From NCBI GenBank assembly GCA_963995525.1, contig OZ023214.1, forward strand, positions 56,690,841-56,754,840: 64,000 nt of DNA, written 5' to 3'. Position numbers and translations under genes: made by a program. Positions 1,066 through 23,299 of the stretch are shown here, one piece after another. Positions within the stretch are counted from its first letter, which is position 1. The number at the start of each line of letters is the position of its first letter. The notes beneath the pieces were generated by a model, which worked only from the letters and a program-made list of their open reading frames with translations, searched no databases and had not been told where the DNA came from. This DNA comes from Escarpia spicata. Lineage: Eukaryota; Annelida; Polychaeta; Sabellida; Siboglinidae.

Positions 1066-1189
1066 ACCTCGTTGGTATCATGCACCTGCAAAATAGGGAA
1101 GAGCATCACCCGCTTACTGAGCGTAGTAATCGTTGTAATTCCTTTTTAGAACAGTCCCGTCCGTTGTTGTCGGAAATGAAGTGTCACCG

Positions 1190-2258: not shown

Positions 2259-2290
2259 CGTCCGATTTGGATTCGGAGGTCGTACACCTG

Positions 2291-2707: not shown

Positions 2708-3109
2708 TTAAATTTGTAGGGGTAGCCGTGCCATTTCACCAACACCCCCCGCGCCTGCGTACCTTCTGTTGCCGCAGTACCGATTCCACGCGGTACAGTT
2801 TATCGATTGGCACAAAAACACCTTCTGCAACTCCGGTTCGTAGAAGGTTCTGTCCAACATCTCGCCAAGATCGTGCGTCAATCGATACAAGGTATGCACC
2901 TCGCGTATTGTGAAGATTTCCTCACTCCAATTCGCCATGTACCCTTTCTCGAACCGACTCTTGACCCTGCTGATATGCACGCGATACGCCAAGTGTAATT
3001 TGGGTACGCCCTTGCCGTCGTATCCGTACAAGCGCTGCCACACCTCTTTCTGATTCGATGCATTCACCCGTGATGAAAGCATACCGATTTTGCATTGGAG
3101 GGTGTCGTT
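2708..3109 (-). pseudogene. C-terminal part of the Polinton retroviral-type integrase (disrupted)
   Basis: The open frame shows the integrase C-terminal region: SRVNASNQKEVWQRLYG, then an SH3-like barrel pattern (AYRVHISRVKSRFEKGYMANW, SEEIFTIREVHTLYRL) and a closing TFYEPELQKV. In Polintons and retroelements this part follows the DDE core and contributes DNA binding. The frame is fused to unrelated sequence at its 5' end because the 18.9-kb element begins at 3110. The missing upstream half with part of the DDE core lies at 21978-22240, same strand, so the two halves flank the insertion. After ELQKV the frame runs on into probable non-coding sequence. The region 2310-2700 downstream shows no recognisable domain. 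Confidence 0.75.
3104..3109. other. Left target-site duplication GTCGTT
   Basis: Six bases GTCGTT immediately precede the left terminal inverted repeat. The same six bases directly follow the right terminal repeat at 21972-21977. They correspond to two consecutive codons (Asn-Asp in the integrase sense) duplicated on insertion. Six-base duplications are characteristic of Polinton integration. Confidence 0.85.
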
Positions 3110-3711
3110 AGTAGTATGTAGGTACCACATGGCCTCGCCCCGCCCCCTTTTAGGCCTAACTACATGCATAAAAAACGTCCTTATCTTTTTCGGGAACCTA
3201 CTTATAAAAAAAAGATCAAAGGGTTTTGTGTAACCTGAGAGAAATCGGGAACCTACTTATAAAAAACGTGATTGATGGCCTGTCACTTTTGATTGATGAT
3301 ATTGAGGTGCCACCTAGCGATTATCCCAGTAATTAGTTTAGCCCTAGCGGATATAACGGCGTCCCTAGTTACGTTAGCAGCGTCCCTAGTTCCGTTCTTT
3401 ATATAACCATACGGTTATAGCTAAAACCACCGTGGTTATAAATAAATAAATTAATTAATAATTAATTAATTAATTAATTATATATATATATATATATATA
3501 TAGGCCTGTCACTTTTTGATTGATGACCCTTCCCTTGATGTGTCACCACCTAGCGGTTATCCCAGTGACTAATTCCCTAGCGATCAACGTAGGACCTACC
3601 GTTGTGCTTACGTAAGCACTTATATAGCGTCCCTAGCGACCGTTGTATATATATATATATATATACGTAATAGGCCTTTATATAACCACAACGGTTATAG
3701 CTAAAACCACT
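3110..3711 (+). repeat. Left terminal inverted repeat of the 18.9-kb element
   Basis: This stretch is the reverse complement of 21395-21971 with only scattered differences, mostly in the poly-A, poly-TA and AATTAATT tracts. It contains two diverged copies of a ~230-bp module (TGATTGATG ... CACCTAGCG ... CGTCCCTAG) at about 3275-3410 and 3505-3640, and small palindromes such as ATAACCATACGGTTAT. No coding potential. Confidence 0.85.
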
Positions 3712-3873
3712 GTGGTTATAACGGCGCTCTAAACCCATTGTGTGAGAATAACACCGCTGTACCCTATGTAGCAGTAGCCAGCAGCGCGGGCCTATGATCT
3801 GGCGGCCTAGTCGCCTTGCCACGACGTCTTACGCACACCGAGCTCCACCTTCGTGCCAGTTAATGCCAGCACG

Positions 3874-3907
<34 letters not shown>

Positions 3908-4110
3908 ATATGCTTATGTAAGCCCGTATATAACCACAACGGTTATAGCGGCGCTGCGCTCTAAACCCATTGTGTGAAAATAACCCCGCTGTACCCTATG
4001 TAGCAGCAGCGGCGTGCGCTCGCAGCAGCAGCAGCAGCAGCAGAAGCAGCCATGACCTATAATCCGGCGGCCTAGTTTCTAAATATAATCATGCGACTAG
4101 CCGGCTCTGT
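3650..4110. repeat. Direct repeat between the left TIR and the palindrome
   Basis: The block ATAACCACAACGGTTATAGC ... GCGCTCTAAACCCATTGTG ... GCTGTACCCTATGTAGCAG occurs at ~3690-3790 and again at ~3930-4010, continuing the ~235-bp spacing seen inside the TIR. TA-dinucleotide tracts (3645-3663, 3873-3912) and a (GCA)n tract (4022-4046) lie between. This segment has no counterpart at the right end, so right-end material has been lost or left-end material duplicated. Confidence 0.6.
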
Positions 4111-4260
4111 AACGGCGTTAATTTCAGCCGTGGCGCTATCAAAACGAAACGAATCCCATGCATGCGTTTAGCGTTTAAAAGCTGTACTCAGCGGCCTGTT
4201 AAAGCAGGATGGTTATATGCGGTGGATAGACGAATGGACGCAAAATGGAGTAAGTTATGT

Positions 4261-4266
4261 TTTATT
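4261..4266 (-). terminator. Poly(A) signal of the left 63-aa gene
   Basis: AATAAA on the minus strand, ~135 bp beyond the stop codon at 4400. The equivalent site exists in the right arm at 16177-16182. Confidence 0.4.
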
Positions 4267-4399
4267 AATAGAAGTCACGGTGGCGTGAGCCAGGTCTGCG
4301 TAATGTTTGCTTGAGAGCATCGTCCCTGCCGTAGCCGAGCGGCGCGTGAGTTGTCCCCGTCAAACTGCCGTTGTAGCATTGTTGAGCGACCGGCTGGAA

Positions 4400-4920
4400 T
4401 TAACGGCAAGTTTTCACACGACATACAGGTTTGTTATAGAGTGTTGTGTGTAGGCAGGTGTATTTCCTTTCCACGTCGAGGCAGGTGGATTCTGTGAAAT
4501 AATGCATATGAATAATGAGGAGTTTCCCAAGAACTAAATCACTGTTATTAATATAAAAGTAAATAATAAAGAATAGTTTAATACAAGAATAGCATATAAA
4601 TAATATAAAAAGTAATTAATATAAAACTTACCGATAGGATAAAAGACGAAATACCGCTGTACTAAATAAAATAAATAAAATAAAACTTACCGCTGTTCTT
4701 TGCATATGAATAATGGAGGAGAACTAAATCAATAATTAATCAAGAATAGTAATTAATAAAGAATAGCATATTATTAATATAAAAGTAATTAATAAAGAAT
4801 ATAAAACTTACGGATAGGATAAAAGACGACTTAACGCTCTACTAAATAAATAAAATAAAATAAAACTTACCGCTGATCTTTCGTGGAAGGTTGCTCAGAC
4901 GTTGTGCTGGCGGTAGCCAT
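4400..4920 (-). CDS. Unknown 63-aa cysteine-containing protein, two exons (left-arm copy)
   Basis: Exon 1 is 4920-4871 (50 nt), starting MATASTTSEQPSTKDQ and ending at a strong donor CAGCG|GTAAGT. Exon 2 is 4541-4400 (142 nt), after acceptor AATAACAG, and ends TAA. Joined they give 63 residues: a Ser/Thr-rich N-terminus, a short hydrophobic stretch (LVLGKLLIIHMHYF), then four cysteines spaced C-8-C-10-C-4-C and a basic C-terminus. No family is recognised. The only base that differs from the right-arm copy within the coding region is a synonymous Tyr TAC/TAT change, which would be a nonsense change in the competing frame, favouring this frame and splicing. The gene diverges from the unknown gene at 5776 around NRF1-like sites. 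Confidence 0.5.
4542..4870 (-). other. Intron of the left 63-aa gene, built of repeated donor-bearing units
   Basis: The AT-rich intron contains further GTAAGTTTTAT donor-like sites (three besides the true donor) and segments resembling short cassette exons, for example TTTAG|TACAGCGG ... CCTATCG|GTAAGT of ~30 nt. The two arms differ here by an internal duplication (329 bp here, 360 bp on the right). Confidence 0.4.
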
Positions 4921-4939
4921 GATTGAATGAAAATGAGCA

Positions 4940-5540
4940 ACGACCGTTGCATGCATGCATTATTTCCTAAAGTCATTTATGCGTTAAGCGCGCATGCGCG
5001 AAAATGTTAAGTGCGCATGCGCGAAAGCGACGTAAAAACAATGAATGCAAAGAGTTCGAAATAGCAATATAAACGGAAATTTAAATACATGAAATGAAGC
5101 GTTGTATACGCTTAGCGAGGGATCGGGCATCTTGTGGTGAATTAATAATAGAGACATTCGATGTAAAAGTCACATTTGACAATGAATGTACTAAAGTGAC
5201 CGCTAATTTTTTTTCCTCCTGAAGCGGAAACCGAATGGTGACGCATAAACAGCTGTGGCGTTAATCGGGGGATCGCATATCACGATCGGAATGTGAAGCT
5301 AGAACAATACCATTTCAAAAACGATACACGAACTATAAAAGCATGAATTGAAGCGTTGTTTAGGATCAGTGGGAAATAGGGATCTGTGTAGTGCCATTAT
5401 ATTATAGAAAATCGATGTAAATAACGTTTGTGAACGAAAAGCACTACATGACCGTTCATTTTTTTTTCTTTCCTAAAGCGAAGACATCCGAGACTAGTCA
5501 GTTATGCGTTAGGCGAACTGTTGTAATAGAACCGTAAATT
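4940..5540. promoter_or_regulatory. Divergent promoter region with NRF1-like sites and repeated modules (left arm)
   Basis: Two near-perfect NRF1-type palindromes (GCGCATGCGCG and TGCGCATGCGC) lie at ~4988-5000 and ~5012-5023, ~70-100 bp upstream of the ATG at 4920. Three diverged modules ending in CCTAAAG/CCTGAAG ... TTATGCGTTA-like sequence follow at ~4965-4990, ~5100-5260 and ~5340-5520, the last two sharing GAAGCGTTGT, a Tn tract and the spacing between them. NRF1 sites are known from CpG-rich metazoan promoters; the bidirectional use is inference from the gene orientations. Confidence 0.45.
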
Positions 5541-5775
5541 ACATAATGGCATGGTGCTCAGCTTACGAAGCGAACTTATTTAAAGCATGACATTTTCTTC
5601 TGTAGGAGGTGCGTCGCGTACTGCTGTGCTGTGCTGATGGCCTGAGTTGCTAAAAAGGGCGGACTAATCATAATAATGTGTGTTTGTAGGCGGCACGACA
5701 GCGCACCAGGCGTGAATGTATTCCTAGATGCTGACGGTGGTCGTAAAGATTAGTAGGATCTGCTTTGTGCTGTAG

Positions 5776-6146
5776 GGGTGCGTGCGTAGCGATAACGAGT
5801 TGGACGTTATCATCGAGGAGGCGCTAGGCGTACCACACATCGAACCGCCGACGTACGAGAGTCTGTACACGGTGTCGCCAACACCGCCGGAAGTGATACA
5901 ACGTCAAGTCATCGCGACGGGTCGGGGTCAGTTGGCCTTCCGCTATGAGCGGCACGCGATGTCCCCCCCTCGCCGAACACCTCAGTGAGATGATTCTGGA
6001 GAGGGCGCGCGAACGATGCGGCGCTGTATCTGGTCCAGTTCGTTTCGGACTGGCTGCTAGGCACGGACTGGCGCGAATACATCAACCGCGCTCTGCTGGA
6101 GTCGACCGTCCATATGTACATTCAGCGCAGGAGCGGACTCGAATAG
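5776..6146 (+). pseudogene. Terminal exon of an unknown gene, two frameshifts (left-arm copy)
   Basis: A candidate acceptor (GTGCTGTAG) precedes a frame beginning RSDNELDVIIEEALGVPHI with a PPTYESLYTVSP motif. The frame breaks at a C7 run (5971-5977), continues one frame over as LAEHLSEMILERARE, and shifts again into NDAALYLVQFVSDWLLGT ... QRRSGLE ending TAG at 6144. AATAAA signals follow at 6187 and 6232. The right-arm copy (14636-14266) has exactly the same length (371 bp), both shifts and only about two amino-acid differences, so the lesions predate, or were homogenised after, palindrome formation. No family is recognised. Upstream exons leading back to the divergent promoter were not resolved. 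It may be a pseudogene or use frame changes. Confidence 0.4.
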
Positions 6147-6186
6147 AACATTATGCTTGCTTTGTTTGCTATAACATTGGTAACAA

Positions 6187-6237
6187 AATAAAAGCCGTTG
6201 TTTTGAATGTTGTACTACGATGGCGACGCTTAATAAA
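6187..6237 (+). terminator. Two AATAAA signals after the left-arm unknown gene
   Basis: AATAAA occurs at 6187-6192 and 6232-6237, 40-90 bp after the stop codon. The mirrored signals exist in the right arm (TTTATT near 14175-14226). Confidence 0.4.
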
Positions 6238-6254
6238 ACGTTGAAAATGTACTT

Positions 6255-7283
6255 TCCGTTCGACAGTCCCACACAGCTCCCTTAAAGTGCCACACAATTT
6301 CCTGACAGTCCCACACAGCTCCTTGACAGTCACACACAGCTCCCCGGCAGTACGTCTAGCTTGTTACATGTTTGCCTTCCGTACATGGTCTAGCTTGTTA
6401 CACGTCTGCCTTCCATACATGTACTAGCTTTTTACTTATTTGCTATCCATACATGGTCTAGCTTGTTACATGTTTGCCTTCCATACACGGACTAGCTTGT
6501 TACATGTTTACCTTCCATACATGGTCTGGCTTGTTACATGTCTGCCTTCCATACATGGTCTAGCTTGTTACATGTCTGCCTTTCATACATGGTCTAGCCT
6601 GTTACATGTCTGCCTTCCGTACATGGACTAGCTTGTTACATGTTGGCCTTCCGTACATGGTCTAGCTTGTTACATGTTTGCCTTACGTACATGGACTAGC
6701 TTGTTACATGTGTGCCTTCCATACACGAACAAGCTTGTTACATGTTTGCCTTACGTACATGGACTAACTTGTTACATGTTTGCCTTCCATACACGGACTA
6801 GCTTGTTACATGTTTGCCTTACATACATGGACTAGCTTGTTACATGTTTGCCTTCCATACATGGTCTAGCTTGTTACAGGTCTGCCTTTCATACATGGTC
6901 TAGCTTGATAAATGTTTCCCTTCCGTACATGGACTAGCTTGTTACATGTTTGCCTTCCATACACGGAGTAGCTTGTTACATGTTTACCTTCCATACACGG
7001 ACTAGCTTGTTACATGTTTGCCTTCCATACACGGACTAGCTTGTTACATGTTTGCCTTCCGTACATGGTCTGGCTTGTTACATGTCTGTCTTCCATACAT
7101 GGTCTAGCTTGCTACATGTTTCCCTTCCATACTGGTCTAACTTGTGACATGTTTGCCTTCCATACATGTTCTAACTTGTTACATGTTTGCCTTCCATACA
7201 TGATCTAGCTTGTTACATGTCTACCTTCCATATATGGTCTAGCTTGTTACATGTCTGCCTTCCGTACATGGACTAGGTTGTTA
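6255..7283. repeat. 34-bp minisatellite (CTAGCTTGTTACATGTTTGC ... CATACATGG), left arm
   Basis: A short 21-bp block (6255-6345) leads into about 27 copies of a 34-bp unit: CTAGCTTGTTACATG followed by TTTGCCTTCCATACATGG. Variation is concentrated at a few positions (CATG/CACG, TCCAT/TCCGT, GTCT/GACT), giving subtypes. Confidence 0.9.
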
Positions 7284-9004
7284 CACCTCCCTGACAGTCC
7301 CACACAGCTTCCGACAGTCACACGCAGTTCCCTGACAGTCCCACACAGTTACCCGACAGTCACACAAAACTCCCGACAGTCCCACACAGCTCCATAATAG
7401 TATTACACAGCTTCCTGACAGTCCTACACAGTTCCTGGCAGTCCCACACAGCTCCATGACATTTATTTTATTTAGGTCTTATTATTTAGCAATAGACCGG
7501 TAAGTTGCCTTTTACACGAGTCCTATTAATTATCTTTATTAATTAATAAGAACCTCATTAGTCATGTTTTGATTTAATTTGGGAACCTCCTCATTAGTCA
7601 CAGCGATAGAGCGGTAGGTTCTGGCAGTCCCACACAGCTCCATGACAGTCCCACACAGTTTCCGACAGTCCCACACAGCTTCCCGACAGTCTCACACAGC
7701 TTCCGACAGTCACACGCAGTTCCCTGACAGTCCCACACAGTTACCCGACAGTCACACAAAACTCCCGACAGTCCCACACAGCTCCATAACAGTATTACAC
7801 AGCTTCCTGACAGTCCCACACAGTTCCTGGCAGTCCCACACAGCTCCATGACATTTATTTTATTTAGTTCTTATTATTTAGCAATAGACCGGTAAGTTGC
7901 CTTTTACACGAGTCCTATTAATTATCTTTATTAATTAATAAGAACCTCATTAATCATGTTTTGATTTAATTTGGGAACCTCCTCATTAGTCACAGCAATA
8001 GAGCGGTAGGTTCTGGCAGTTCCACACAGCTCCATGACAGTCCCACACACTTCCCGACAGTCCCACACAGCTTCCTGACAGTCCCACACAGCTACCTGGC
8101 TACATGTCTCCCTTCCATACATGGTCTAACTTGTGACATGTTTGCCTTCCATATATGGTCTAGCTTGTTTCATGTTTGCCTTCCATACACGGACTAGGTT
8201 GTTACATATTTGCCTTCCATACATGAACTAGCTTGTTACATGTCTGCCTTCCATATATGGTCTAGCTTGTTACGTGTTTGCCTTTCATACATGGTCTAGC
8301 CTGTTACATGTCTGCCTTCCGTACATGGACTAGGTTGTTACAGCTCCCTGACAGTCCCACACAGTTCCCTGACAGTCCCACACAGTTACCCGACAGTCAC
8401 ACAAAACTCCTGACAGTCACACAAAACTCCCGACAGTCCCACACAGCTCCATAACAGTATTACACAGCTTCCTGACAGTCCCACACAGTTCCTGGCAGTC
8501 CCACACAGCTCCATGACATTTATTTTATTTAGTTCTTATTATTTAGCAATAGACCGGTAAGTTGCCTTTTACACGAGTCCTATTAATTATCTTTATTAAT
8601 TAATAAGAACCTCATTAGTCATGTTTTGATTTAATTTGGGAACCTCCTCATTAGTCACAGCGATAGAGCGGTAGGTTCTGGCAGTCCCACACAGCTCCAT
8701 GACAGTCCCACACACTTCCCGACAGTCCCACACAGCTTCCCGACAGTCCCACACAGCTCCCTGGCTACATGTCTCCCTTCCATACATGGTCTAACTTGTG
8801 ACATGTTTGCCTTCCATACATGGTCTAGCTTGTTACATGTTTGCCTTCCATACACGGACTAGGTTGTTACATATTTGCCTTCCATACATGAACTAGCTTG
8901 TTACATGTCTGCCTTCCATATATGGTCTAGCTTGTTACGTGTTTGCCTTTCATACATGGTCTAGCCTGTTACATGTCTGCCTTCCGTACATGGACTAGGT
9001 TGTT
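7284..9004. repeat. Higher-order repeat: 21-bp block, ~165-bp spacer, 34-bp block (left arm)
   Basis: A composite unit repeats about three times. It consists of 21-bp minisatellite, an AT-rich ~165-bp spacer with the invariant block CAATAGACCGGTAAGTTGCC ... AGCGGTAGG (7463-7620, 7850-8020, 8514-8690), more 21-bp units, and a short 34-bp array (8100-8340, 8765-9000). The first composite is shorter and lacks a 34-bp block. The spacer carries GGTAAGT and resembles the intron of the palindrome gene (GGTAAGTTTTATTTTATTTAG and GAACTAAAT words). Confidence 0.8.
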
Positions 9005-10115
9005 ACAGCTCCCTGACAGTCACACGCAGTTCCCTGACAGTCCCACACAGTTACCCGACAGTCACACAAAACTCCTGACAGTCCCACACAGCTCCATAAC
9101 AGTATAACACAGCTTCCTGACAGCCCCACACAGTTCCTGGCAGTCCCACACAGCTCCATGACAGTCCCACACAGTTCCCCGACAGTCACACCCAGCTTCC
9201 CGACAGTCCCACACAGCTCCCTGAAAGTATCACACAATTCCCTGACAGTCCCACACAGCTCCCTGACAGTCACACACAGCTCCCCGGCAGTACCACACAA
9301 TTCCCTGACAGTCCCACACAGCTCTCTGACAGTCCCACACAGCTCCTGACAGTCCCACACAGTTCCCTTACAGTCCCACACAACTCTTGACAGTCAAACA
9401 CAGCTCCCTGACAGTCCCACACAGTTCCGGTCAGTCCCACACAGCTCCCTGACAGTCCCACACAGCTCCCTGACAGTCACACGCAGTTCCCTGACAGTCC
9501 CACACAGTTATCCGGCAGTCACACAAAACTCCTGACAGTCCCACACAGCTCCATAACAGTATTACACAGTTACCCGACAGTCCCACACAGCTCCATGACA
9601 GTCCCACACAGTTCCCGACAGTCCCACACAGCTTCCCGACAGTCCCACGCAGCTCCCTACCACACAATTCCCTGACAGTCCCACACAGTTCCGGTCAGTC
9701 CCCACACAACTCCCTGACAGTCTCACACAGCTCCCCGACAGTCCCACACAGCTCCCTGACAGTCCCACACAGTTACCCGACAGTCCCACACAATTCTCTG
9801 ACAGTCCCACACAGCTCCCTGACAGTCCCACACAGCTTCCCGACAGTCCCACACAGCTCCCTGAAAGTACCACACAATTCCCTGACAGTCCCACACAGCT
9901 CCCTGACAGTCACACACAGCTCCCCGACAGTTCCCTGACAATCCCTGACAGTCCCACACAGCTCCATGACAGTCCCACACAGCGCCCGGCAGTCACACAC
10001 AGCTCCCTGACAGTCCCACACAGTTACCCGACAGACACACAAACTCCTGACTGACAGTGCCACACAGCTCCCTGACAGTCTCACACAGCTCCCTGACAGT
10101 ACAACGCAGTTTCTC
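9005..10115. repeat. 21-bp minisatellite (CTGACAGTCCCACACAGCTCC), left arm
   Basis: About 50 copies of a 21-bp unit with common variants (CCCGACAGT, AGTTCC, GTCACAC). Because 21 is a multiple of three, open frames run through it on both strands; these are composition artefacts. Confidence 0.9.
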
Positions 10116-10281
10116 GTCAGTCTGTATGTATGTATGTATGTAGGTATGTAGGAGCCGTCGCACCACGGCGCCGATACTCGTCTAACTCGTATAACTAACT
10201 AACTAACTCGTCTAACTCGTAGGGGGGTGGCGGGGGGTTCTGTATGTATGTATGTATGTAGGTATGTAGGGTAATAAAAAC
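10116..10281. repeat. (GTAT)n / TAACTAACTCG tracts at the inner end of the left arm
   Basis: TCTGTATGTATG-type tetranucleotide tracts flank CGTCGCACCACGGCGCCG and a TAACTAACTAACTCG block followed by GGGGGGTGGCGGGGGG. The same sequence is present in reverse complement at ~10715-10862, so it belongs to the palindrome. Confidence 0.7.
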
Positions 10282-10710: not shown

Positions 10711-10879
10711 TGTATATTTTTATTACCCTACATCCCAACATACATACATACAGAACCCCCCGCCACCCCCCTACGAGTTAGACGAGTTAGTTAGTTAGTT
10801 ATACGAGTTAGATGAGTATCGTCGCCGTGGTGCGACGGCTCCTACATACCTACATACATACAGACTGAAGAGGAACTGC

Positions 10880-11800
10880 GTTGTACTGTCAGGGAGCTGT
10901 GTGAGACTGTCAGGGAGCTGTGTGGCACTGTCAGTCAGGAGTTTGTGTGTCTGTCGGGTAACTGTGTGGGACTGTCAGGGAGCTGTGTGTGACTGCCGGG
11001 CGCTGTGTGGGACTGTCATGGAGCTGTGTGGGACTGTCAGGGATTGTCAGGGAACTGTCGGGGAGCTGTGTGTGACTGTCAGGGAGCTGTGTGGGACTGT
11101 CAGGGAATTGTGTGGTACTTTCAGGGAGCTGTGTGGGACTGTCGGGAAGCTGTGTGGGACTGTCAGGGAGCTGTGTGGGACTGTCAGAGAATTGTGTGGG
11201 ACTGTCGGGTAACTGTGTGGGACTGTCATGGAGCTGTGTGGGACTGTCGGGTAACTGTGTAATACTGTTATGGAGCTGTGTGGGACTGTCAGGAGTTTTG
11301 TGTGACTGTCGGGTAACTGTGTGGGACTGTCAGGGAACTGCGTGTGACTGTCAGGGAGCTGTGTGGGACTGACCGGAACTGTGTGGGACTGTCAGGGAGC
11401 TGTGTTTGACTGTCAAGAGTTGTGTGGGACTGTAATGGAACTGTGTGGGACTGTCAGGAGCTGTGTGGGACTGTCAGAGAGCTGTGTGGGACTGTCAGGG
11501 AATTGTGTGGTACTGCCGGGGAGCTGTGTGTGACTGACAGGGAGCTGTGTGGGACTGTCAGGGAATTGTGTGATACTTTCAGGGAGCTGTGTGGGACTGT
11601 CGGGAAGCTGTGTGTGACTGTCGGGGAACTGTGTGGGACTGTCATGGAGCTGTGTGGGACTGCCAGGAACTGTGTGGGACTGTCAGGAAGCTGTGTTATA
11701 CTGTTATGGAGCTGTGTGGGACTGTCAGGAGTTTTGTGTGACTGTCGGGTAACTGTGTGGGACTGTCAGGGAACTGTGTGGGACTGTCAGGGAGCTGTAA
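10880..11800. repeat. 21-bp minisatellite, right arm
   Basis: Mirror of the left-arm array: units of GGGAGCTGTGTGGGACTGTCA. Fewer copies than the left counterpart. Confidence 0.9.
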
Positions 11801-13130
11801 CAACCTAGTCCATGTACGGAAGGCAGACATGTAACAGGCTAGACCATGTATGAAAGGCAAACATGTAACAAGCTAGACCATATATGGAAGGCAGACATGT
11901 AACAAGCTAGTTCATGTATGGAAGGCAAATATGTAACAACCTAGTCCGTGTATGGAAGGCAAACATGTAACAAGCTAGACCATGTATGGAAGGCAAACAT
12001 GTCACAAGTTAGACCATGTATGGAAGGGAGATATGTAGCCAGGGAGCTGTGTGGGACTGTCGGGAAGCTGTGTGGGACTGTCGGGAAGTGTGTGGGACTG
12101 TCATGGAGCTGTGTGGGACTGCCAGAACCTACCACTCTATCGCTGTGACTAATGAGGAGGTTCCCAAATTAAATCAAAACATGACTAATGAGGTTCTTAT
12201 TAATTAAAAAAGATAATTAATAGGACTCGTGTAAAAGGCAACTTACCGGTCTATTGCTAAATAATAAGAACTAAATAAAATAAATGACATGGAGCTGTGT
12301 GGGACTGCCAGGAACTGTGTGGGACTGTCAGGAAGCTGTGTAATACTGTTATGGAGCTGTGTGGGACTGTCGGGAGTTTTGTGTGACTGTCAGGAGTTTT
12401 GTGTGACTGTCGGGTAACTGTGTGGGACTGTCAGGGAACTGTGTGGGACTGTCAGGGAGCTGTAACAACCTAGTCCATGTACGGAAGGCAGACATGTAAC
12501 AGGCTAGACCATGTATGAAAGGCAAACATGTAACAAGCTAGACCATATATGGAAGGCAGACATGTAACAAGCTAGTTCATGTATGGAAGGCAAATATGTA
12601 ACAACCTAGTCCGTGTATGGAAGGCAAACATGTAACAAGCTAGACCATATATGGAAGGCAAACATGTCACAAGTTAGACCATGTATGGAAGGGAGACATG
12701 TAGCCAGGGAGCTGTGTGGGACTGTCGGGAAGCTGTGTGGGACTGTCGGGAAGTGTGTGGGACTGTCATGGAGCTGTGTGGAACTGCCAGAACCTACCGC
12801 TCTATCGCTGTGACTAATGAGGAGGTTCCCAAATTAAATCAAAACATGACTAATGAGTTTCTTATTAATTAATAAAGATAATTAATAGGACTCGTGTAAA
12901 AGGCAACTTACCGGTCTATTGCTAAATAATAAGAACTAAATAAAATAAATGTCATGGAGCTATGTGGGACTGCCAGGAACTGTGTGGGACTGTCAGGAAG
13001 CTGTGTAATACTGTTATGGAGCTGTGTGGGACTGTCGGGAGTTTTGTGTGACTGTCGGGTAACTGTGTGGGACTGTCAGGGAACTGCGTGTGACTGTCGG
13101 AAGCTGTGTGGGACTGTCAGGGAGGTGTAA
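11801..13130. repeat. Higher-order repeat, right arm
   Basis: Mirrors 7284-9004 with alternating 34-bp blocks (11800-12035, 12465-12705), AT-rich ~165-bp spacers (12125-12290, 12790-12955) and 21-bp blocks. Two spacer copies were recognised here against three on the left, so the arms have diverged in copy number. Confidence 0.8.
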
Positions 13131-14060
13131 CAACCTAGTCCATGTACGGAAGGCAGACATGTAACAAGCTAGACCATATATGGAAGGTAGACATGTAACA
13201 AGCTAGATCATGTATGGAATGCAAATATGTAACAAGCTAGTCCGTGTATGGAAGGCAAACATGTAACAAGCTAGACCATGTATGGAAGGCAAACATGTCA
13301 CAAGTTAGACCATGTATGGAAGGGAAACATGTAGCAAGCTAGACCATGTATGGAAGACAGACATGTAACAAGCTAGTCCGTGTATGGAAGGCAAACATGT
13401 AACAAGCTAGTCCGTGTATGGAAGGTAAACATGTAACAAGCTAGTCCGTGTATGGAAGGCAAACATGTAACAAGCTAGTCCATGTACGGAAGGGAAACAT
13501 GTATCAAGCTAGACCATGTATGAAAGGCAGACCTGTAACAAGCTAGACCATGTATGGAAGGCAAACATGTAACAAGCTAGTCCATGTATGTAAGGCAAAC
13601 ATGTAACAAGCTAGTCAGTGTATGGAAGGCAAACATGTAACAAGTTAGTCCATGTACTTAAGGCAAACATGTAACAAGCTTGTTCGTGTATGGAAGGCAC
13701 ACATGTAACAAGCTAGTCCATGTACGTAAGGCAAACATGTAACAAGCTAGACCATGTACGGAAGGCCAACATGTAACAAGCTAGTCCATGTACGGAAGGC
13801 AGACATGTAACAGGCTAGACCATGTATGAAAGGCAGACATGTAACAAGCTAGACCATGTATGGAAGGCAGACATGTAACAAGACAGACCATGTATGGAAG
13901 GTAAACATGTAACAAGCTAGTCCGTGTATGGAAGGCAAACATGTAACAAGCTTGACCATGTATGGATAGCAAATAAGTAAAAAGCTAGTACATGTATGGA
14001 AGGCAGACGTGTAACAAGCTAGACCATGTACGGAAGGCAAACATGTAACAAGCTAGACGT
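13131..14060. repeat. 34-bp minisatellite, right arm
   Basis: Units of CCATGTATGGAAGGCAAACATGTAACAAGCTAGA in reverse orientation to the left-arm array, with similar subtypes in mirrored order. Confidence 0.9.
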
Positions 14061-14265
14061 ACTGCCGGGGAGCTGTGTGTGACTGTCAAGGAGCTGTGTG
14101 GGACTGTCAGGAAATTGTGTGGCACTTTCAGGGAGCTGTGTGGGACTGTCGAACGGAAAGTACATTTTCAACGTTTTATTAAGCGTCGCCATCGTAGTAC
14201 AACATTCAAAACAACGGCTTTTATTTTGTTACCAATGTTATAGCAAACAAAGCAAGCATAATGTT

Positions 14266-14636
14266 CTATTCGAGTCCGCTCCTGCGCTGAATGTACGTAT
14301 GGACGGTCGACTCCAGCAGAGCGCGGTTGATGTAGTCGCGCCAGTCCGTGTCTAGCAGCCAGTCCGAAACGAACTGGACCAGATACAGCGCCGCATCGTT
14401 CGCGCGCCCTCTCCAGAATCATCTCACTGAGGTGTTCGGCGAGGGGGGGACATCGCGTGCCGCTCATAGCGGAAGGCCAACTGACCCCGACCCGTCGCGA
14501 TGACTTGACGTTGTATCACTTCCGGCGGTGTTGGCGACACCGTGTACAGACTCTCGTACGTCGGCGGTTCGATGTGTGGTACGCCTAGCGCCTCCTCGGT
14601 GATAACGTCCAACTCGTTATCGCTACGCACGCACCC
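14266..14636 (-). pseudogene. Terminal exon of an unknown gene, two frameshifts (right-arm copy)
   Basis: Mirror of 5776-6146 with the same acceptor (GTGCTGTAG), the same G7/C7 run breaking the first frame, the same second shift and the same TAG stop at 14268-14266. One Ile/Thr difference lies early in the first frame (ELDVITEE) and one Ile/Leu difference in an alternative frame. The function is unknown. It is transcribed away from the 63-aa gene at 15492. Confidence 0.4.
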
Positions 14637-14879
14637 CTACAGCACAAAGCAGATCCTACTAATCTTTACGACCACCGTCAGCATCTAGGAATACATTCAC
14701 GCCTGGTGCGCTGTCGTGCCGCCTACAAACACACATTATTATGATTAGTCCGCCCTTTTTAGCAACTCTGGCCATCAGCACAGCACAGCAGTACGCGACG
14801 CACCTCCTACAGAAGAAAATGTCATGCTTTAAATAAGTTCGCTTCGTAAGCTGAGCACCATGCCATTATGTAATTTACG

Positions 14880-15480
14880 GTTCTATTACAACAGTTCGCC
14901 TAACGCATAACTGACTAGTCTCGGATGTCTTTGCTTTAGGAAAGAAAAAAAAATGAACGGTCATGTAGTGCTTTTCGTTCACAAACGTTATTTACATCGA
15001 TTTTCAATAATATAATGGCACTACACAGATCCCTATTTCCCACTGATCCTAAACAACGCTTCAATTCATGCTTTTATAGTTCGTGTATCGTTTTTGAAAT
15101 GGTATTGTTCTAGCTTCACATTCCGATCGTGATATGCGATCCCCCGATTAACGCCACAGCTGTTTATGCGTCACCATTCGGTTTCCGCTTCAGGAGGAAA
15201 AAAAATTAGCGGTCACTTTAGTACATTCATTGTCAAATGTGACTTTTACATCGAATGTCTCTATTATTAATTCACCACAAGATGCCCGATCCCTCGCTAA
15301 GCGTATACAACGCTTCATTTCATGTATTTAAATTTCCGTTTATATTGCTATTTCGAACTCTTTGCATTCATTGTTTTTACGTCGCTTTCGCGCATGCGCA
15401 CTTAACATTTTCGCGCATGCGCGCTTAATGCATAAATGACTTTAGGAAATAATGCATGCATGCAACGGTCGTTGCTCATT
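14880..15480. promoter_or_regulatory. Divergent promoter region with NRF1-like sites (right arm)
   Basis: NRF1-type palindromes GCGCATGCGCA (~15389-15400) and GCGCATGCGCGC (~15412-15424) sit ~70-100 bp upstream of the ATG at 15492. The repeated ~245-bp modules are mirrored at 14890-15070 and 15130-15330. Confidence 0.45.
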
Positions 15481-15491
15481 TTCATTCAATC

Positions 15492-16043
15492 ATGGCTACC
15501 GCCAGCACAACGTCTGAGCAACCTTCCACGAAAGATCAGCGGTAAGTTTTATTTTATTTTATTTATTTAGTAGAGCGTTAAGTCGTCTTTTATCCTATCC
15601 GTAAGTTTTATATTCTTTATTAATTACTTTTATATTAATAATATGCTATTCTTGATTAATTACTATTCTTGATTAATTATTGATTTAGTTCTCCTTTTAT
15701 ATTAATAACAGTGATTTAGTTCTCCTCCATTATTCATATGCAAAGAACAGCGGTAAGTTTTATTTTATTTATTTTATTTAGTACAGCGGTATTTCGTCTT
15801 TTATCCTATCGGTAAGTTTTATATTAATTACTTTTTATATTATTTATATGCTATTCTTGTATTAAACTATTCTTTATTATTTACTTTTATATTAATAACA
15901 GTGATTTAGTTCTTGGGAAACTCCTCATTATTCATATGCATTATTTCACAGAATCCACCTGCCTCGACGTGGAAAGGAAATACACCTGCCTACACACAAC
16001 ACTCTACAACAAACCTGTATGTCGTGTGAAAACTTGCCGTTAA
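15492..16043 (+). CDS. Unknown 63-aa cysteine-containing protein, two exons (right-arm copy)
   Basis: Exon 1 is 15492-15541 (MATASTTSEQPSTKDQ, donor CAGCG|GTAAGT). Exon 2 is 15902-16043, acceptor AATAACAG, stop TAA; the joined length is 192 nt (63 residues plus stop). The C-terminal part contains CLDVERKYTC and CRVKTCR. A competing acceptor (TTATTTCACAG at 15951) opens an 88-aa frame ending at 16168, but in the left arm that frame is broken by a TAA while the 63-aa frame is unchanged, so the 63-aa model is preferred. An AATAAA follows at 16177. A small basic Cys-rich protein with a hydrophobic middle could be secreted or zinc-binding; no function is assigned. Confidence 0.5.
15542..15901 (+). 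other. Intron of the right 63-aa gene with repeated exon-like units
   Basis: GTAAGTTTTAT occurs four times across exon 1 donor and intron (15542, 15601, ~15752, ~15812). TTTAG or AACAG acceptor-like sites stand before each, delimiting cassettes of ~30 nt ending CCTATCC|GTAAGT or CCTATCG|GTAAGT and one of 41 nt ending AACAGCG|GTAAGT. The 41-nt cassette would change the phase, so it could only be an alternative form. Confidence 0.4.
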
Positions 16044-16176
16044 TTCCAGCCGGTCGCTCAACAATGCTACAACGGCAGTTTGACGGGGACAACTCACGCG
16101 CCGCTCGGCTACGGCAGGGACGATGCTCTCAAGCAAACATTACGCAGACCTGGCTCACGCCACCGTGACTTCTATT

Positions 16177-16182
16177 AATAAA
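16177..16182 (+). terminator. Poly(A) signal of the right 63-aa gene
   Basis: AATAAA, ~135 bp after the TAA stop at 16043 and within the palindrome arm; mirrored at 4261-4266. Confidence 0.4.
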
Positions 16183-16332
16183 ACATAACTTACACCATTT
16201 TGCGTCCATTCGTCTATCCACCGCATATAACCATCCTGCTTTAACAGGCCGCTGAGTACAGCTTTTAAACGCTAAACGCATGCATGGGATTCGTTTCGTT
16301 TTGATAGCGCCACGGCTGAAATTAACGCCGTT

Positions 16333-16475
16333 GTCGCGCTTACATTTATCCGGGCGTTAAATAATATCCGGGTGACGTTTCTGCGCGTGCGCGTATCTAG
16401 GGGAATATATTTAACGCTACCTACGACGTTTACATTTATCCGGGCGTTACATTTTATCCGGGTGATGTTTATGTG
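16333..16475. repeat. Two copies of a ~90-bp unit (ACATTTATCCGGGCGTTA)
   Basis: GCTTACATTTATCCGGGCGTTA ... ATCCGGGTGACGTTT at ~16337-16381 is repeated as GTTTACATTTATCCGGGCGTTA ... ATCCGGGTGATGTTT at ~16428-16470. It starts exactly where the right palindrome arm ends and has no left counterpart. Confidence 0.6.
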
Positions 16476-16819
16476 CATATGTAAGGCATACTATTTGGCA
16501 CCAGTAGATCAGGTGGTGATATAACTATTATTTAGTATATAAATAATTTCGTTTGTTGTCGAAACACGATCCTTATAGTTAGAGCACATAATAATAATTT
16601 CCTGTTTCATATTTATAACCCAAGTATAAGAGTAAGTCACGTGACGTGTGCGTGGAGAAGATATTGTTTATGTCTGTGGGAATCAAACATTTTATAATTT
16701 ATGTCAATTATATATATATATATATATATATATATTGAGGAATACAGATCTACGTACTTACATGAAATGGCTGAATAAAAATGTTATGTCAGTCGTCGGC
16801 GACATACACTGTTGTAAAT

Positions 16820-16852
<33 letters not shown>

Positions 16853-17050
16853 GCGCGCGTGCGTGCGTAAAGATTATAAAATTAACGTACGTTTATACTA
16901 ATGCTACATGCTTTATTAGGTGTTTTAATTAATATTTAATTACTGCACAAATCATTGACATGTCTGATAATGTTATTACGTGGGCATTAGAAGACACGGA
17001 TACACACAGACAGTTTTGTATACCTGGAGGTTGACGTGACAGAGAGTTTG
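16476..17050. other. AT-rich region with TA and GT microsatellites
   Basis: Contains (TA)n at ~16708-16735 and (GT)n at ~16820-16850, followed by GCGCGCGTGCGTGCG. No coding exon was supported. Confidence 0.5.
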
Positions 17051-17055
17051 GTGAG

Positions 17056-17250
17056 ATGTCGGCTGAAGTGGGCGGTACACATAGAACGAATGGGGGAGAA
17101 CAGCTAGCGAAGAAAGCGGATACACGGAAAGTGGACGGGGAAAGGAGGCCAGGAAGACTAAGATTGCGTTCGGAAGATTGCTTTAAGAGAGACTTTGAAG
17201 GATTGGGAGAGGGGTGGAGAAGGAAAGCGAAAGAGACAATTCTACATACA
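17056..17250 (+). pseudogene. C-terminal fragment of a LINE-type reverse-transcriptase protein
   Basis: The frame contains RKVDGERRPGRLRLRSEDC followed by FKRDF and WRRKAK. This resembles the common C-terminal signature of LINE polyproteins (GKR-RPGRP-LRW-DCV-RD ... W...A). No reverse transcriptase or endonuclease domain is present upstream, so only the tail remains. Domesticated use is possible but nothing supports it. Confidence 0.4.
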
Positions 17251-17527
17251 GTAAAGTATAAGAAAGTAGTCCTGCTAATAAGATCACCTCGCTAACCAGG
17301 TCGCTTTTGCTCAGACCCAATGGTGACCTTCATAATTAGGTTCCACTGTAATTGCTTTTTACTATATTCTAAGACTATTTGTTGATAGAACAATAACTGC
17401 ACTTTATATAGTTCACCGTGTTCAAAGTTTGCAATCAATTTTATATAACTCGTTAAACACAAGATATTCCTTTCAGCTGCAGCAAACAACATACAATACA
17501 CCTGTTTAGAAACATAGCACACAATAA
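17251..17527. other. Spacer, no feature recognised
   Basis: AT-rich sequence with no repeat or exon signature beyond chance ORFs. Confidence 0.4.
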
Positions 17528-17653
17528 TCACTCATTATCCACACAGACATCACACACAAAGTAGTTATTGACCGCAGCAGAACACTGTCGCTGCTTGGTC
17601 TGATTCTGGGCACATGTGATGTGGTACTGCCAGTGGCACCAGTCACATCTCAT
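17528..17653 (-). CDS. Last exon of a gene ending in a PHD-type zinc finger half
   Basis: A clear acceptor (ATCTGTTGCAG) precedes a 41-codon frame with CDWCHWQYHITC and, near the end, FVCDVC before DNE and TGA. The C-x2-C-x4-H-x4-C ... C-x2-C spacing matches the second half of a C4HC3 PHD finger. PHD fingers usually bind histone tails, but Ulp1-protease and other transposon proteins also end in such fingers. The next upstream exon may be the one at 18913-18799 although that ends in a stop in the frame I read, so the gene model is unresolved. It lies inside the 18.9-kb element on the strand of the flanking Polinton genes. Confidence 0.45.
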   Translation of the reverse strand: MRCDWCHWQYHITCAQNQTKQRQCSAAVNNYFVCDVCVDNE

Positions 17654-18798
17654 CTGCAACAGATACATGTTTTATTCAGCCATAGCCATATTGCAAGACA
17701 ATGTTTGGTATATATTGTCTATATGTACTGTATAAGGCTCGTTATATCTTATAACTTTATATGTGCAGGTTTGTTTATCTAGTTCATTTGTTTTCCAAGT
17801 TATAGCAATATTAAATTTATTAATAATATCTATATTGTAGCATTTTAATAAATGGTAAATACTACTGAAGAGACATTTACTTTATAATAATAACTTAATT
17901 TAGTTTTTAAAATTGGGCTGTGTTAAAAAATCAATGCTAATAACAACTATACAGTTAGTATTTTATAATATTTGGGTATTATTTGTTGAGGAAAATAAAC
18001 TGGAAATTGAAAGATGAGATTATAAAGTGTACATTTCTGACATGACAACATTGATGGGACATCACCTAGACGTGTATTTTTGGCTCGTGTGCAGAATAAT
18101 TAATCACTAAATCACCAGTAAGGTGTTTCAATGCAGTACTATTTACCAAACAAATTGATGAAATACTCATCCTCCACAGAATGCTAGTAGTTATATAAAG
18201 GACAAAATCCCACCACAATAAAGGTAACCCTTTTATAGATATTGGAAGAACTAAACAACAGACGATTGCAATACTCAGTGAGATGTCCATAAACCAGGAG
18301 TATATTGTGCATCTAGTGACATACCAGCTGGATTTGAACCAGCCACAAAACACTGATATATTGCATTCGATTGTTGAAGTATACAAAGAAATTATAACTA
18401 TCTATATGACGAGTGTGGACAAAAGTCAGCTGTTTGATCGAGATATACTATGGAAGATGTTACCTATTTCTAAAATTGGTAACACAGAGTTATGCACTTG
18501 CTTCACCTGAACAAGACATCGTAAGAGCATGGTAAGACAAGACTAGTACATGAAACCAAATTCACACAGGTTTTATTCACAATGCACACATATATACACA
18601 GCTATATAAATGAGTACAAAACTATAGGCACCATTGAATCTGTGAGTGAGTGTTGCTGAATGCTTCCCGGAGACTGTTGGTGTTGCAGTGAGCATCCCCA
18701 GTGACAGGAGCATCCCCAGTGACAGTTATATTTTTCTCACTGACATTACCAAAATTTCCAAACTTCATTCATAAGTAAAATTTAATAATACAAAACTG
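17654..18798. other. AT-rich region with one unrecognised ORF
   Basis: A plus-strand frame at 18199-18510 (~100 codons; contains QLDLNQPQNTDILHSIVEVY and KSQLFDRDILWKML) looks more protein-like than its surroundings, and a single stop separates it from another short open stretch upstream. It has no recognised domain. The rest is AT-rich without visible features. Confidence 0.3.
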
Positions 18799-18913
18799 TT
18801 AAAGTTTATCAGTGCTCTTAAGTAATGTGTGTCTTGAGGTTTGAACTGCATAGCCATTATAAATTATGTCACATCCATCTTCTGACTGCATGTTCCCAGT
18901 TGGTCCAGTTGCC
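18799..18913 (-). CDS. Possible exon resembling the start of a Ulp1-type protease domain
   Basis: An acceptor TTATGATTGCAG precedes 37 codons containing GCDIIYNGYAVQTSRHTLL and ending TAA. The I-x-GY-x(2)-T-x(4)-L pattern is weakly like the segment before WLND in Ulp1/SENP proteases. The stop falls before any catalytic residue, so it is either a truncated terminal exon or unrelated. Its interest lies in sharing the strand with the PHD-like exon 1.1 kb downstream; Ulp1 plus a C-terminal zinc finger is a known transposon protein architecture. Confidence 0.25.
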
Positions 18914-20629
18914 CTGCAATCATAAAAAAATACATTCATTAACATGATTGTGCAATATTATACGAAACATTGTGCTGTGCAGTTTCTCTCAATGCATGCT
19001 GAATGGTTGAAACGAATGAATAGCTTTTGTGCAGAATGTGTAATTCATATACAGTATAGATCCCAATAGAAACACACTATCCATCTAGACTAATGGCATA
19101 GAAGCACACACTGTTTTTCATTAGGGAAACGTATAAAAGTAGATTTTTCATGAATGAATGCAGGCTGGACATAACTGATGGCAATACTGTTGCTAGCGCC
19201 ACTTTGCAGATGCTTGATAGGTCATTCATAGTGTGCGTGTGTGCCTTTAGCTGCAACATGTTGCATTCTTGTCATGTGTCGATGTTGCACCAGTCAGTTT
19301 GGTAGATGTGCACTGCTGACTATGTATGTTTGAAAAAGTGTTGCCTGGTACCACTTTTGAGAAACAAATAGTCGTGCACCCAAGTCTTAGCACACGCTCT
19401 GAGCGTCTATTGGGAACTCTAGTAGTCTATATGGTACACCTATTCAATTTTCAACTTAACCATTGATACATACAAAATGTACAGTTACATTTGTCACACT
19501 ACATGCATGAACATACAACCGCACAATAATTATTTTGTCACTGGGCAAACTTGGGTTTCTACTTTACCCTCGTTCTGACGTTCATGAAGAATAGTCTAAA
19601 TTTTACATGGGTCTACCTAAAAAAAATCACATAAAAAACTTCTGAGTATATTTGATTAATTTTTTTTACTCATTAGCTTATATACATGGCTACATTTCTC
19701 TAATTGGACATTGACACATACAACCACTCGGAAATTAGCTAGTAGTAGAACAAACAAAATATTTGTTTTGCATTTATTTTATGTAAACTTTAAACAGTTA
19801 TATCTTCATGATTATTTGATGTTATGCAAATATCATCACTGCATAATAATAAAGGGTCTTTTTGCCAACAAAATTATAGCTCAATCATATTTTTGCAATA
19901 CGTATTAGCGAAGTTGTGATTTTTTAAAACACCCCTACAAATAGCTCCAAATTGTGTACACCGTGGAAGTTTACCATTGGTCACCTGCAGGGTTACAAAC
20001 TTTTGTGCTGTTAGGATATCCAAGAACACACTCAGCTATATTATTGGAACTTACCTTTAAGCACCAGTTGGCTCTTTCACAGATGGATACTACATGGACA
20101 GAAGATTTGCGACTAAAATAATAGTGCATATCATGTGGTAGGTTTATATATATGTATATATTATATATATGTTGTTACAAAAGTAAATTAAGACTTGCAG
20201 AAAACAATCAAGCCATAGTATCAATATGGCCTATTATATACAATAATTATAAACAGTTGTTAAATATTACATTTCAATTAAATTAATTGTATATACCAAG
20301 GGGGTCTACACATATTATTTTAATATTATGTATGACTCGTACTGATAGAAGTCCACATCAATAATGGCTAAATACATTACCGGTATTTCATAGACTATTT
20401 TATATTTCATTTGGTGGCTATGCTATGGCTATGCCTGTGGCATTACCACTAGTCAGTAGTCCGTCGACTCTATTCGACTACGTGAGTACCGGGTATGTGA
20501 CTGTGTGAGTATCACTACGGACATGACTATGCTGCATGCACTAGCCAATGTTAAACCTATCAATACTATTACATTTACATCCTGGCATCCAGAAGAATAT
20601 TCCACAGTTTGTTGCACATGCGCGGTTTA
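18914..20629. other. AT-rich non-coding region
   Basis: Long AT-rich stretch with a short TA tract near 20145-20170. I see no exon with both plausible splice sites and protein-like composition. Confidence 0.4.
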
Positions 20630-21396
20630 AAAGGGTTGATAAAAACAGGGTTGATAAAAACAGCGTTTATTTTTTTATTCTTTTTTTAAGGTGTGTCTAG
20701 GTAGTATTTTTTACCCAGACCTCAACTGCCGCTTTGAAGGCTGTGACGGTGCTGGCCGAAGACGCTTTGTCGGGGAAGAAGGAATGGAGGTGCGTGTTTG
20801 TTCTGGAGTGAGGCAGGAGGAGCTTGTTGGGCTGTCCCCTGGTGATGCGGTTGTTTGTTGTCAGTGTGCCCTCAGTTGGCGTGATGTCCACAAGTCCACT
20901 CATTATCTTGTACATAAAGGTGGCCTTGTTGACAGTTTTTCTTTCTTGGAGGGTCTGTAGTTGTAGTCTGTTTACAAGTTCTGTGGCACTGGTATAGTGG
21001 TTCAAATCATGGTAGATTCTCCTCGCGGCACGGCGCTGGACAGCTTCGATGGTGTTTACCAGGTGTTGCTGGTGGGGATCCCACACGACAGAGGCGTACT
21101 CCAACACGGGGCAGACCAGTCCTTTGTAGCAATGTCAGTACACCTGTGGAGGGCACCCTTTAAGGTTTCTGTATATGAAAGCACTTGTACGGTTTGCCTT
21201 GGCAGTGGTGGTCTGTATGTGGTTTCTCCAGTGGAGGTCAGCTCTACACCTAGGTGTTTGGCGCTGGTGACTCTCTCCAGGGGCTGCTGATGGAGTGAAT
21301 ACATTGCTATAATGGGCTTGCGCTTCTTTGTGACAGTTAGGACGTGACACTTGGATATATTGAAACTCATCTGCCACTTCCTCTCCCATCCGTTGT
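20630..21396 (-). mobile_element. 5'-truncated LINE (reverse-transcriptase C-terminal region)
   Basis: Minus-strand frames encode the thumb-to-tail part of a non-LTR reverse transcriptase: WQMSFNISKCHVLTVTKKR, then AKHLGVELTS, DLHWRNHI, and LEYASVVWDPHQQHLVNTIE with AARRIYHD. These match the conserved order FN-KC ... YLGV-L-DLHW--HI ... PILEYAS-VW-P. One frameshift (~21200) and loss of everything N-terminal make it dead. The coding end at 20700 is followed by an A-rich 3' end (T-rich on plus, 20669-20688) and a doubled GGGTTGATAAAAACA (20633-20662), typical of LINE 3' termini. Its 5' end coincides with the inner edge of the right TIR at ~21395. Confidence 0.8.
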
Positions 21397-21971
21397 GGTT
21401 ATATAAAGGCCTATTACGTATATATATATAAATATATACAACGGTCGCTAGGGACGCTATATAAGTGCTTACGTAAGCACAACGGTAGGTCCTACGTTGA
21501 TCGCTAGGGAATTAGTCACTGGGATAACCGCTAGGTGGTGACACCTCAAGGGAAGGGTCATCAATCAAAAAGTGACAGGCCTATATATATATATATATAT
21601 ATAATTAATTAATTAATTAATTATTAATTAATTAATTAATTTATAACCACGGTGGTTTTAACTATAACCGTATGGTTATATAAAGAACGTAACTAGGGAC
21701 GCTGCTAACGTAACTAGGGACGCCGTTATATCTGCTAGGGCTAAACTAATTACTGGGATAATCGCTAGGTGGCACCTCAATATCATCAATCAAAAGTGAC
21801 AGGCCATCAATCACGTTTTTTATAAGTAGGTTCCCGATTTCTCTCAGGTTACACAAAACCCTTTGATCTTTTTTTATAAGTAGGTTCCCGAAAAAGATAA
21901 GGACGTTTTTTATGCATGTAGTTAGGCCTAAAAGGGGGCGGGGCGAGGCCATGTGGTACCTACATATTACT
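21395..21971 (-). repeat. Right terminal inverted repeat of the 18.9-kb element
   Basis: Reverse complement of 3110-3711 with a few substitutions and tract-length differences. It ends CCTACATATTACT directly before the target duplication. Confidence 0.85.
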
Positions 21972-21977
21972 GTCGTT
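21972..21977. other. Right target-site duplication GTCGTT
   Basis: Identical to 3104-3109. The flanking integrase reading (minus strand) reaches a Tyr-Asn-Asp here and resumes with Asn-Asp at 3109, as expected for a 6-bp duplication inside a codon pair. Confidence 0.85.
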
Positions 21978-22945: not shown

Positions 22946-22949
22946 AGAT

Positions 22950-23297: not shown

Positions 23298-23299
23298 TC

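What the first reader, a model, noticed from the sequence alone, without database searches (positions are those of the whole stretch)
3104..21977. An 18.9-kb Polinton-like element inserted inside another Polinton's integrase gene
The sequence shows identical 6-bp duplications (GTCGTT), AGTA-starting inverted ends and ~0.6-kb TIRs. Integrase coding sequence on the same strand lies on both sides: the DDE-core half at 21978-22245 and the C-terminal half at 2708-3109, split exactly at an Asn-Asp codon pair. Six-base duplications are the established Polinton signature. The element lacks recognisable Polinton core genes and interrupts the integrase of its presumed helper family, so it looks like a hyperparasitic, non-autonomous relative.
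Basis: partly seen in the sequence, partly recalled or inferred. Interest (0 to 1): 0.93.

Follow-up and report, generated by a model that had tools for sequence, protein, structure and literature searches.

The report
Gene-less palindromic satellite of Polintons
The insertion is real: it is one of a family of large mirror-image DNA elements without working genes that appear to be spread by virus-like transposons called Polintons, and whose outer ends match those of the Polintons while their interiors form a separate lineage, as if the two kinds trade ends.

Summary
The 18.9-kb element (3110-21971) has exact 6-bp duplications and 585-bp TIRs, and splits a Polinton integrase at an Asn-Asp codon pair. 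The window's own 1.06-Gb genome shows what it is: a multicopy family. Of 18 copies read at both ends, 17 have exact 6-bp duplications. They are mostly long palindromes with only gene scraps. Their arms match the LEFT end only of gene-bearing Polintons in the same genome (integrase, PolB, ATPase, double-jelly-roll capsid), so they look like an inverted duplication of that end. Inner arms form one clade, about 20% diverged from the Polintons. The outer ~320 bp do not: there palindromes and Polintons are equally alike and intermixed (one clade rejected, p-AU 2e-5), and both ends of a copy carry nearly the same tip. Best reading: a helper-dependent satellite, like symmetric defective viral genomes, that repeatedly acquires helper ends. 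Mobilisation in trans and snap-back origin are inferred. The recipient is a decayed Polinton of another lineage, not the helper. Nesting is not clearly above chance, since Polintons are very common here. A gene-bearing 28.6-kb copy, first taken for the helper, is a Polinton nested in a palindrome.

The parts
3104..3109 (.). left target-site duplication GTCGTT
21972..21977 (.). right target-site duplication GTCGTT
3110..3694 (+). left TIR; its first ~320 bp is the segment in which palindromes and gene-bearing Polintons are intermixed
21390..21971 (-). right TIR
3110..6260 (+). left arm part that follows, with gaps, the left end of gene-bearing Polintons (arm positions 1-3151)
3810..3872 (-). 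63-bp inverted scrap of the Polinton RPA-like gene (residues 226-246)
   Evidence: L001:2263-2201
5754..6260 (+). shortened remnant of the Polinton 201-aa gene, frame broken here
4111..9965 (+). left palindrome arm, largely 34-bp and 21-bp tandem arrays from 6262 on
10872..16332 (-). right palindrome arm
16333..21389 (.). extra ~5 kb in the right arm in place of the counterpart of 3695-4110; a reverse-transcriptase-like fragment at 20700-21398 (-) is my reading by eye, Pfam found nothing
2674..3109 (-). recipient: C-terminal part of Polinton integrase
21972..22193 (-). recipient: part of integrase core (residues 160-234)
22205..22675 (-). recipient: PolB fragment (residues 211-363)
22901..23326 (-). 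recipient: RPA-like gene fragment
952..1981 (-). recipient: fragment of the Polinton gene next to integrase (orfB, candidate minor capsid)

Best explanation
A non-autonomous, palindromic Polinton satellite family. It arose once by inverted duplication of the left end of a Polinton (TIR, subterminal region, remnant of a 201-aa gene; RPA-like gene lost; tandem repeats added), so both ends carry the sequences a Polinton's machinery would recognise. I infer that gene-bearing Polintons supply integrase, polymerase and perhaps capsid in trans. I also infer a linear extrachromosomal stage in which one end is copied onto the other and ends are exchanged with helper molecules, so that the outer ~320 bp is repeatedly replaced by helper ends. 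Integration then makes the 6-bp duplication. Shown: family, duplications, palindromes, left-end origin of both ends, single-clade interior, intermixed ends, near-identical tips within a copy. Inferred: trans-mobilisation, snap-back origin, extrachromosomal stage, packaging.
For: 6-bp duplications in 17 of 18 palindromes and 3 of 3 Polintons checked. Arms colinear with the Polinton left end; left subterminal sequence matches 41 of 46 palindrome pieces, right subterminal 0 of 46. Inner arm: one clade, 100/100 in 3 of 3 segments; identity between kinds 79-82%. Outer 320 bp: identity 96.1 / 96.1 / 95.9 within palindromes, within Polintons and between; one clade rejected at p-AU 2.2e-5 and 0.013 with 36 palindrome and 12 Polinton ends. 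Tips agree at 25-30 of 30 nt within 12 copies against 21.8 on average between copies, and at 29-30 in 6 more. Gene-bearing helpers with the same TIR exist, at least 96 scored integrase copies at 90% identity or more.
Against: No movement, transcript, episome or particle was observed. 7 of 24 ends match another copy better than their own partner. Palindrome and Polinton labels are more clustered on the terminal tree than in shuffles (7 changes against a mean of 10.9), so mixing is partial. Many branches of that tree are weak (9 of 44 starred). Inner segments could be compared with only 5, 10 and 9 of 10 Polintons. Conversion between chromosomal copies could explain part of it.
Confidence: 0.7

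Rival explanations
1. Galileo-like origin and mixing in chromosomes: gene conversion between integrated copies copied one TIR with its neighbouring sequence onto the other end, and later conversion, limited to the highly similar outer ~320 bp, mixes TIR variants between palindromes and Polintons.
For: The same outcome (TIR1-F1-F1-TIR2) is proposed for Galileo, where inverted-repeat expansion of Polintons is also mentioned (PMC3573991, passages). Thousands of loose Polinton candidates exist and only the outer ~320 bp is highly similar between the kinds.
Against: Conversion of integrated copies acts on one end at a time, yet both ends of a copy carry nearly the same tip in 18 of 18 copies.
Confidence: 0.22
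2. The outer ~320 bp is simply conserved by selection as origin and integrase site, without exchange.
For: It coincides with the TIR, which must be functional.
Against: Palindromes have lower mean identity there (96.1) than in any of three inner segments (97.2-99.1), and the one-clade tree that fits the interior is rejected at the ends.
Confidence: 0.05
3. Assembly artefact of long palindromes and tandem arrays.
For: Such sequence is hard to assemble and no reads were available.
Against: Loci on many contigs show the same architecture with different flanks and exact 6-bp duplications; no gap lies in the window's element.
Confidence: 0.02

Closest known systems
Polintons/Mavericks (polintoviruses)
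   Same: 6-bp duplications, AGT-starting ends, TIRs, outer TIR ~96% identical to that of gene-bearing Polintons of the same genome
   Different: No integrase, PolB, ATPase or capsid gene; both ends derive from the left end; mostly palindromic
Foldback and Galileo-type elements (long, internally repetitive TIRs)
   Same: Nearly all TIR, internal tandem repeats, non-autonomous copies made of TIRs (PMC3573991, passages)
   Different: [quoted passage not shown] this element has Polinton ends and 6-bp duplications
Symmetric (snap-back) defective genomes of linear DNA viruses such as adenoviruses
   Same: Two copies of one genome end, internal genes lost, would need a helper (analogy recalled; one search found no paper on it)
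   Different: Here a lineage integrated at many loci; no virion or episome seen
Tlr elements of Tetrahymena
   Same: Once proposed as non-autonomous Polinton derivatives (PMC4028283, passage)
   Different: Tlr encodes integrase, ATPase and capsid proteins; this element encodes none

Membership tests
Polinton/Maverick, autonomous | rve integrase, PolB, packaging ATPase, capsid genes | tested here: not met
   None of 13 Polinton proteins matches inside 3110-21971 beyond a few codons at the edges; only scraps of an RPA-like and a 201-aa gene
Polinton/Maverick, autonomous | 6-bp target-site duplication and TIRs | tested here: met
Non-autonomous Polinton derivative | ends shared with a gene-bearing Polinton of the same genome | tested here: met
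   Outer ~320 bp 95.9% identical on average to gene-bearing Polintons; C12 and C1 complete with both ends, integrase, ATPase, NADAR; PolB and capsid genes read in C12
Non-autonomous Polinton derivative | moved by the helper's integrase | not testable with these tools
   inferred from shared ends and duplications
Foldback/Galileo-like element | very long inverted repeats with internal tandem arrays | tested here: met
Foldback/Galileo-like element | P-superfamily transposase relationship (Galileo) | tested here: inconclusive
   No transposase search of that kind was made; the ends instead match Polintons
Satellite or symmetric defective genome of a linear virus | two copies of one genome end | tested here: met
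   left-end sequence at both ends, right-end sequence in 0 of 46 pieces
Satellite or symmetric defective genome of a linear virus | replicates and is packaged only with a helper | not testable with these tools
   no reads, episomal or virion data

The most novel reading that the evidence does not exclude
These are fossils of a long-lived satellite of an animal polintovirus: symmetric genomes without genes that replicated and travelled with helper genomes, perhaps in helper particles and at their expense. They persisted by taking over whichever terminal sequence the current helper lineage used, and were deposited in the germline many times. The tandem arrays may be stuffer that keeps the genome near packaging size (most copies 9.6-17 kb against 16.6-16.7 kb for two helpers).
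Probability: 0.22. Interest if true: 0.85.

Novelty: new variant of a known kind. Interest (0 to 1): 0.6.

Why it matters
Polintons link transposons and viruses, and whether animal Polintons have parasites of their own is open. A lineage made of one duplicated end, whose interior is nearly clonal while its termini track several helper variants, gives a sequence-level signature of co-replication and end exchange that can be tested in any genome rich in Polintons. It would also suggest that Polintons of this genome have, or recently had, a linear extrachromosomal stage.

Tried and rejected
Helper candidate rejected: the 28.6-kb copy C6:44318697-44347306 carries a Polinton gene set. Its gene block has its own 132-bp TIRs (97.7%) and its own duplication TACATG, so it is a Polinton nested in a palindrome.

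Targeting not supported: Polinton-family sequence lies at 4 of 35 insertion sites read (24 palindromes, 10 Polinton left ends, 1 nested Polinton; flanks from 27 bp to about 1.5 kb; two apparent duplicates, L034 and L037, left out): the window; the C4 palindrome in the 201-aa gene of a helper-family Polinton; Polinton C11 beside a 92%-identical ATPase; the nested Polinton in C6b. Integrase queries met 3132 and 3020 loose candidates, so Polintons may fill roughly 4% of the genome (my estimate, unverified). One search gave P 0.013, 0.043 and 0.11 for 4 of 31 sites at assumed shares of 3, 4.3 and 6%; the later recount to 35 sites weakens it.

Conserved gene in the arms rejected: the 135-aa frame is the cut-down 201-aa gene and is broken in several copies.

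Pfam on the RT-like pieces and on the integrase piece 2711-3103 gave nothing. Rfam at gathering thresholds gave nothing. PDB by sequence gave no capsid match. No paper describing palindromic or defective Polintons was recognised in the listings of 10 searches (open-access library, capped lists, most papers not opened). Whether the nested Polinton family also has palindromic derivatives could not be asked.
Full report
Setting. The window is G000:C11:56690841-56754840 of a 1.06-Gb assembly whose large contigs are 52-90 Mb. Among named matches, the best integrase match (96% identical) sits in a bin called endosymbiont of Escarpia laminata, and capsid relatives are named for Lamellibrachia satsuma and Ridgeia piscesae; more distant ones include Littorina. 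I infer a vestimentiferan tubeworm; it is not proved.

Observation. The two GTCGTT copies, the 585-bp TIRs (98.1%) and the split integrase are as described. The recipient is a relic on the minus strand: orfB 952-1981, integrase 2674-3109 and 21972-22193, PolB 22205-22675, RPA-like 22901-23326, in the order seen in the nested intact Polinton; what should lie between PolB residue 363 and integrase residue 160 is missing. Whether this decay preceded the insertion is unknown.

Inside. The element is a palindrome with arms 4111-9965 and 10872-16332, largely tandem arrays of 34-bp and 21-bp units. The right arm alone carries about 5 kb of extra sequence (16333-21389) in place of the counterpart of 3695-4110. 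None of 13 Polinton proteins matches inside, beyond a few codons at the edges.

Family. A 601-bp TIR query scored 40 of 1382 candidates. Both ends were read for 18 copies: 12 (window included) and 6. Six bases are duplicated exactly in 17; C5c matches at 5 of 6. Of 8 loci fetched, two showed one end only and are not in the pair count. Of the first 12 copies, 11 are long palindromes (window; C1, C2, C5b, C5c, C6a, C6b, C14, whose output was cut in the middle; C5a, C9, C15a, + and - arms) and one, C15b, is asymmetric with 835-bp inverted ends. An arm query scored 40 of 786 candidates, in 24 loci; 16 of these show a + and a - arm about 3-24 kb apart, 8 have one scored arm.

Helpers. Ten TIR hits that matched only about the first 330 bp are left ends of gene-bearing Polintons. 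In the 10 stretches read inward, 7 show the RPA-like gene, one of these also capsid and PolB pieces, and one other shows PolB and the zinc-finger protein; two (L081, L082) match no query protein but align with the rest at 84-98%. For two elements I found the right end: C12:46921642-46938354 and C1:39520978-39537619, with duplications TACGTT and CTCGAT and TIRs of 250 bp (96.8%) and 259 bp (98.8%). Pfam: rve (E 4e-12), NADAR, RPA C-domain, IVa2/A32-type ATPase. PolB and capsid candidates in C12 were found by comparison with the nested family, PolB at 47-49% and capsid at 56%; the nested family's own PolB matches DNA_pol_B_2 below the curated cut-off. A relative of the helper capsid candidate (P0121, 87% identical) was folded (mean pLDDT 81) and its best PDB matches are double-jelly-roll capsids of Sputnik, PBCV-1, an iridovirus and mavirus, TM 0.5-0.6. 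The helper integrase query has 96 scored matches, all at 90% identity or more; that of the nested family 108, at 94% or more.

Derivation. The arm follows the Polinton left end, with gaps, to arm position about 3151. The RPA-like gene is missing except for an inverted 63-bp scrap present in most palindrome ends searched, but not in C5b or the window's right arm; the 201-aa gene is shortened. Left subterminal sequence of both Polintons matches 41 of 46 palindrome pieces; right subterminal sequence matches 0 of 46. Both ends of the palindromes thus come from one Polinton end.

End exchange. Outer 320 bp (12 palindromes, 10 Polintons): mean identity 96.1 among palindromes, 96.1 among Polintons, 95.9 between. 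At 985-1305 (12 and 5): 99.1, 94.1, 79.4. At 1900-2430 (12 and 10): 97.2 (lowest pair 86.4), 96.6, 81.3. At 2640-2920 (12 and 9): 98.6, 96.3, 81.5. Rows matching under 55% of a segment were dropped. Palindromes are one clade with 100/100 in all three inner segments; at the ends one clade is rejected, p-AU 2.2e-5. In 50-bp steps the change falls between 300 and 350, near the inner end of the Polinton TIR (5 palindromes, 10 Polintons; several inner steps align poorly or not at all). With 36 palindrome ends and 12 Polinton ends over 250 bp the labels need 7 changes, at least 3 forced by well-supported branches; one clade is rejected at p-AU 0.013; the labels are still more clustered than in shuffles (mean 10.9). 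An earlier quick tree shows the same mixing. Polinton C3a shares part of a TIR insert with palindromes C6b and C2x.

Ends match within a copy. Mean identity of the two ends is 98.3 in 12 copies against 92.6 between copies, yet the best between-copy pair reaches 99.3, and 7 of 24 ends match another copy better. The 30-nt tips agree at 25-30 positions within copies (25 in C1, which has a local duplication) and 21.8 on average between; in 6 further copies at 29-30.

Mechanism. From papers (passages): Polintons have protein-primed PolB and rve integrase, and rve integrase makes 6-bp duplications (PMC4028283; PMC12220804). A molecule with two left ends would have two origins and two integrase sites. 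Copying one end onto the other in a linear molecule, and recombination with helper ends, would give matched tips and intermixed TIRs. Conversion in chromosomes, as proposed for Galileo (PMC3573991), could give the palindrome and part of the mixing but explains matched tips less easily. Neither route was observed.

Nesting. Four of 35 insertion sites read lie in or beside Polinton-family sequence, including one palindrome (C4:63.26 Mb) inside the 201-aa gene of a helper-family Polinton (88-91% identical). Given the thousands of loose integrase candidates this is not good evidence for targeting.

Age. The window copy's arms differ by about 2% (97.8% over 3.6 kb). No rate is available to date it.

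Noticed in passing
L071:2487 to L073:4981 (G000:C6:44322283-44337981): A 15.7-kb Polinton of a second, very abundant family is nested in a palindrome, with its own TIRs and TACATG duplication; its integrase carries a chromodomain (Pfam), and none was found in the helper integrase piece, which is cut at its end.
   Followed up: partly
positions 8-24 of the TIR in all copies read: A short stretch behind the constant AGTAGTA tip varies strongly between copies but hardly within a copy; one exact 30-nt tip is shared by palindromes C5b and C1 (right end) and Polinton C15x.
   Followed up: partly
arm position ~331-345 (window ~3440-3455): Similarity between palindromes and Polintons breaks at a small imperfect palindrome (AACCACCGTGGTTAT) that recurs nearby.
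   Followed up: no
L091, L092 (G000:C4:63259557-63272638): Another palindrome is inserted in the 201-aa gene of a helper-family Polinton.
   Followed up: partly
arm position 127/128 of query window:5500-6060 (window ~5626): Most scored arms carry about 105 bp more here than the window's copy, which suggests two palindrome subfamilies.
   Followed up: no
L086:2680-3177 and L073:2643-3302: Both Polinton families carry a NADAR-domain gene near one end; its role is unknown.
   Followed up: no
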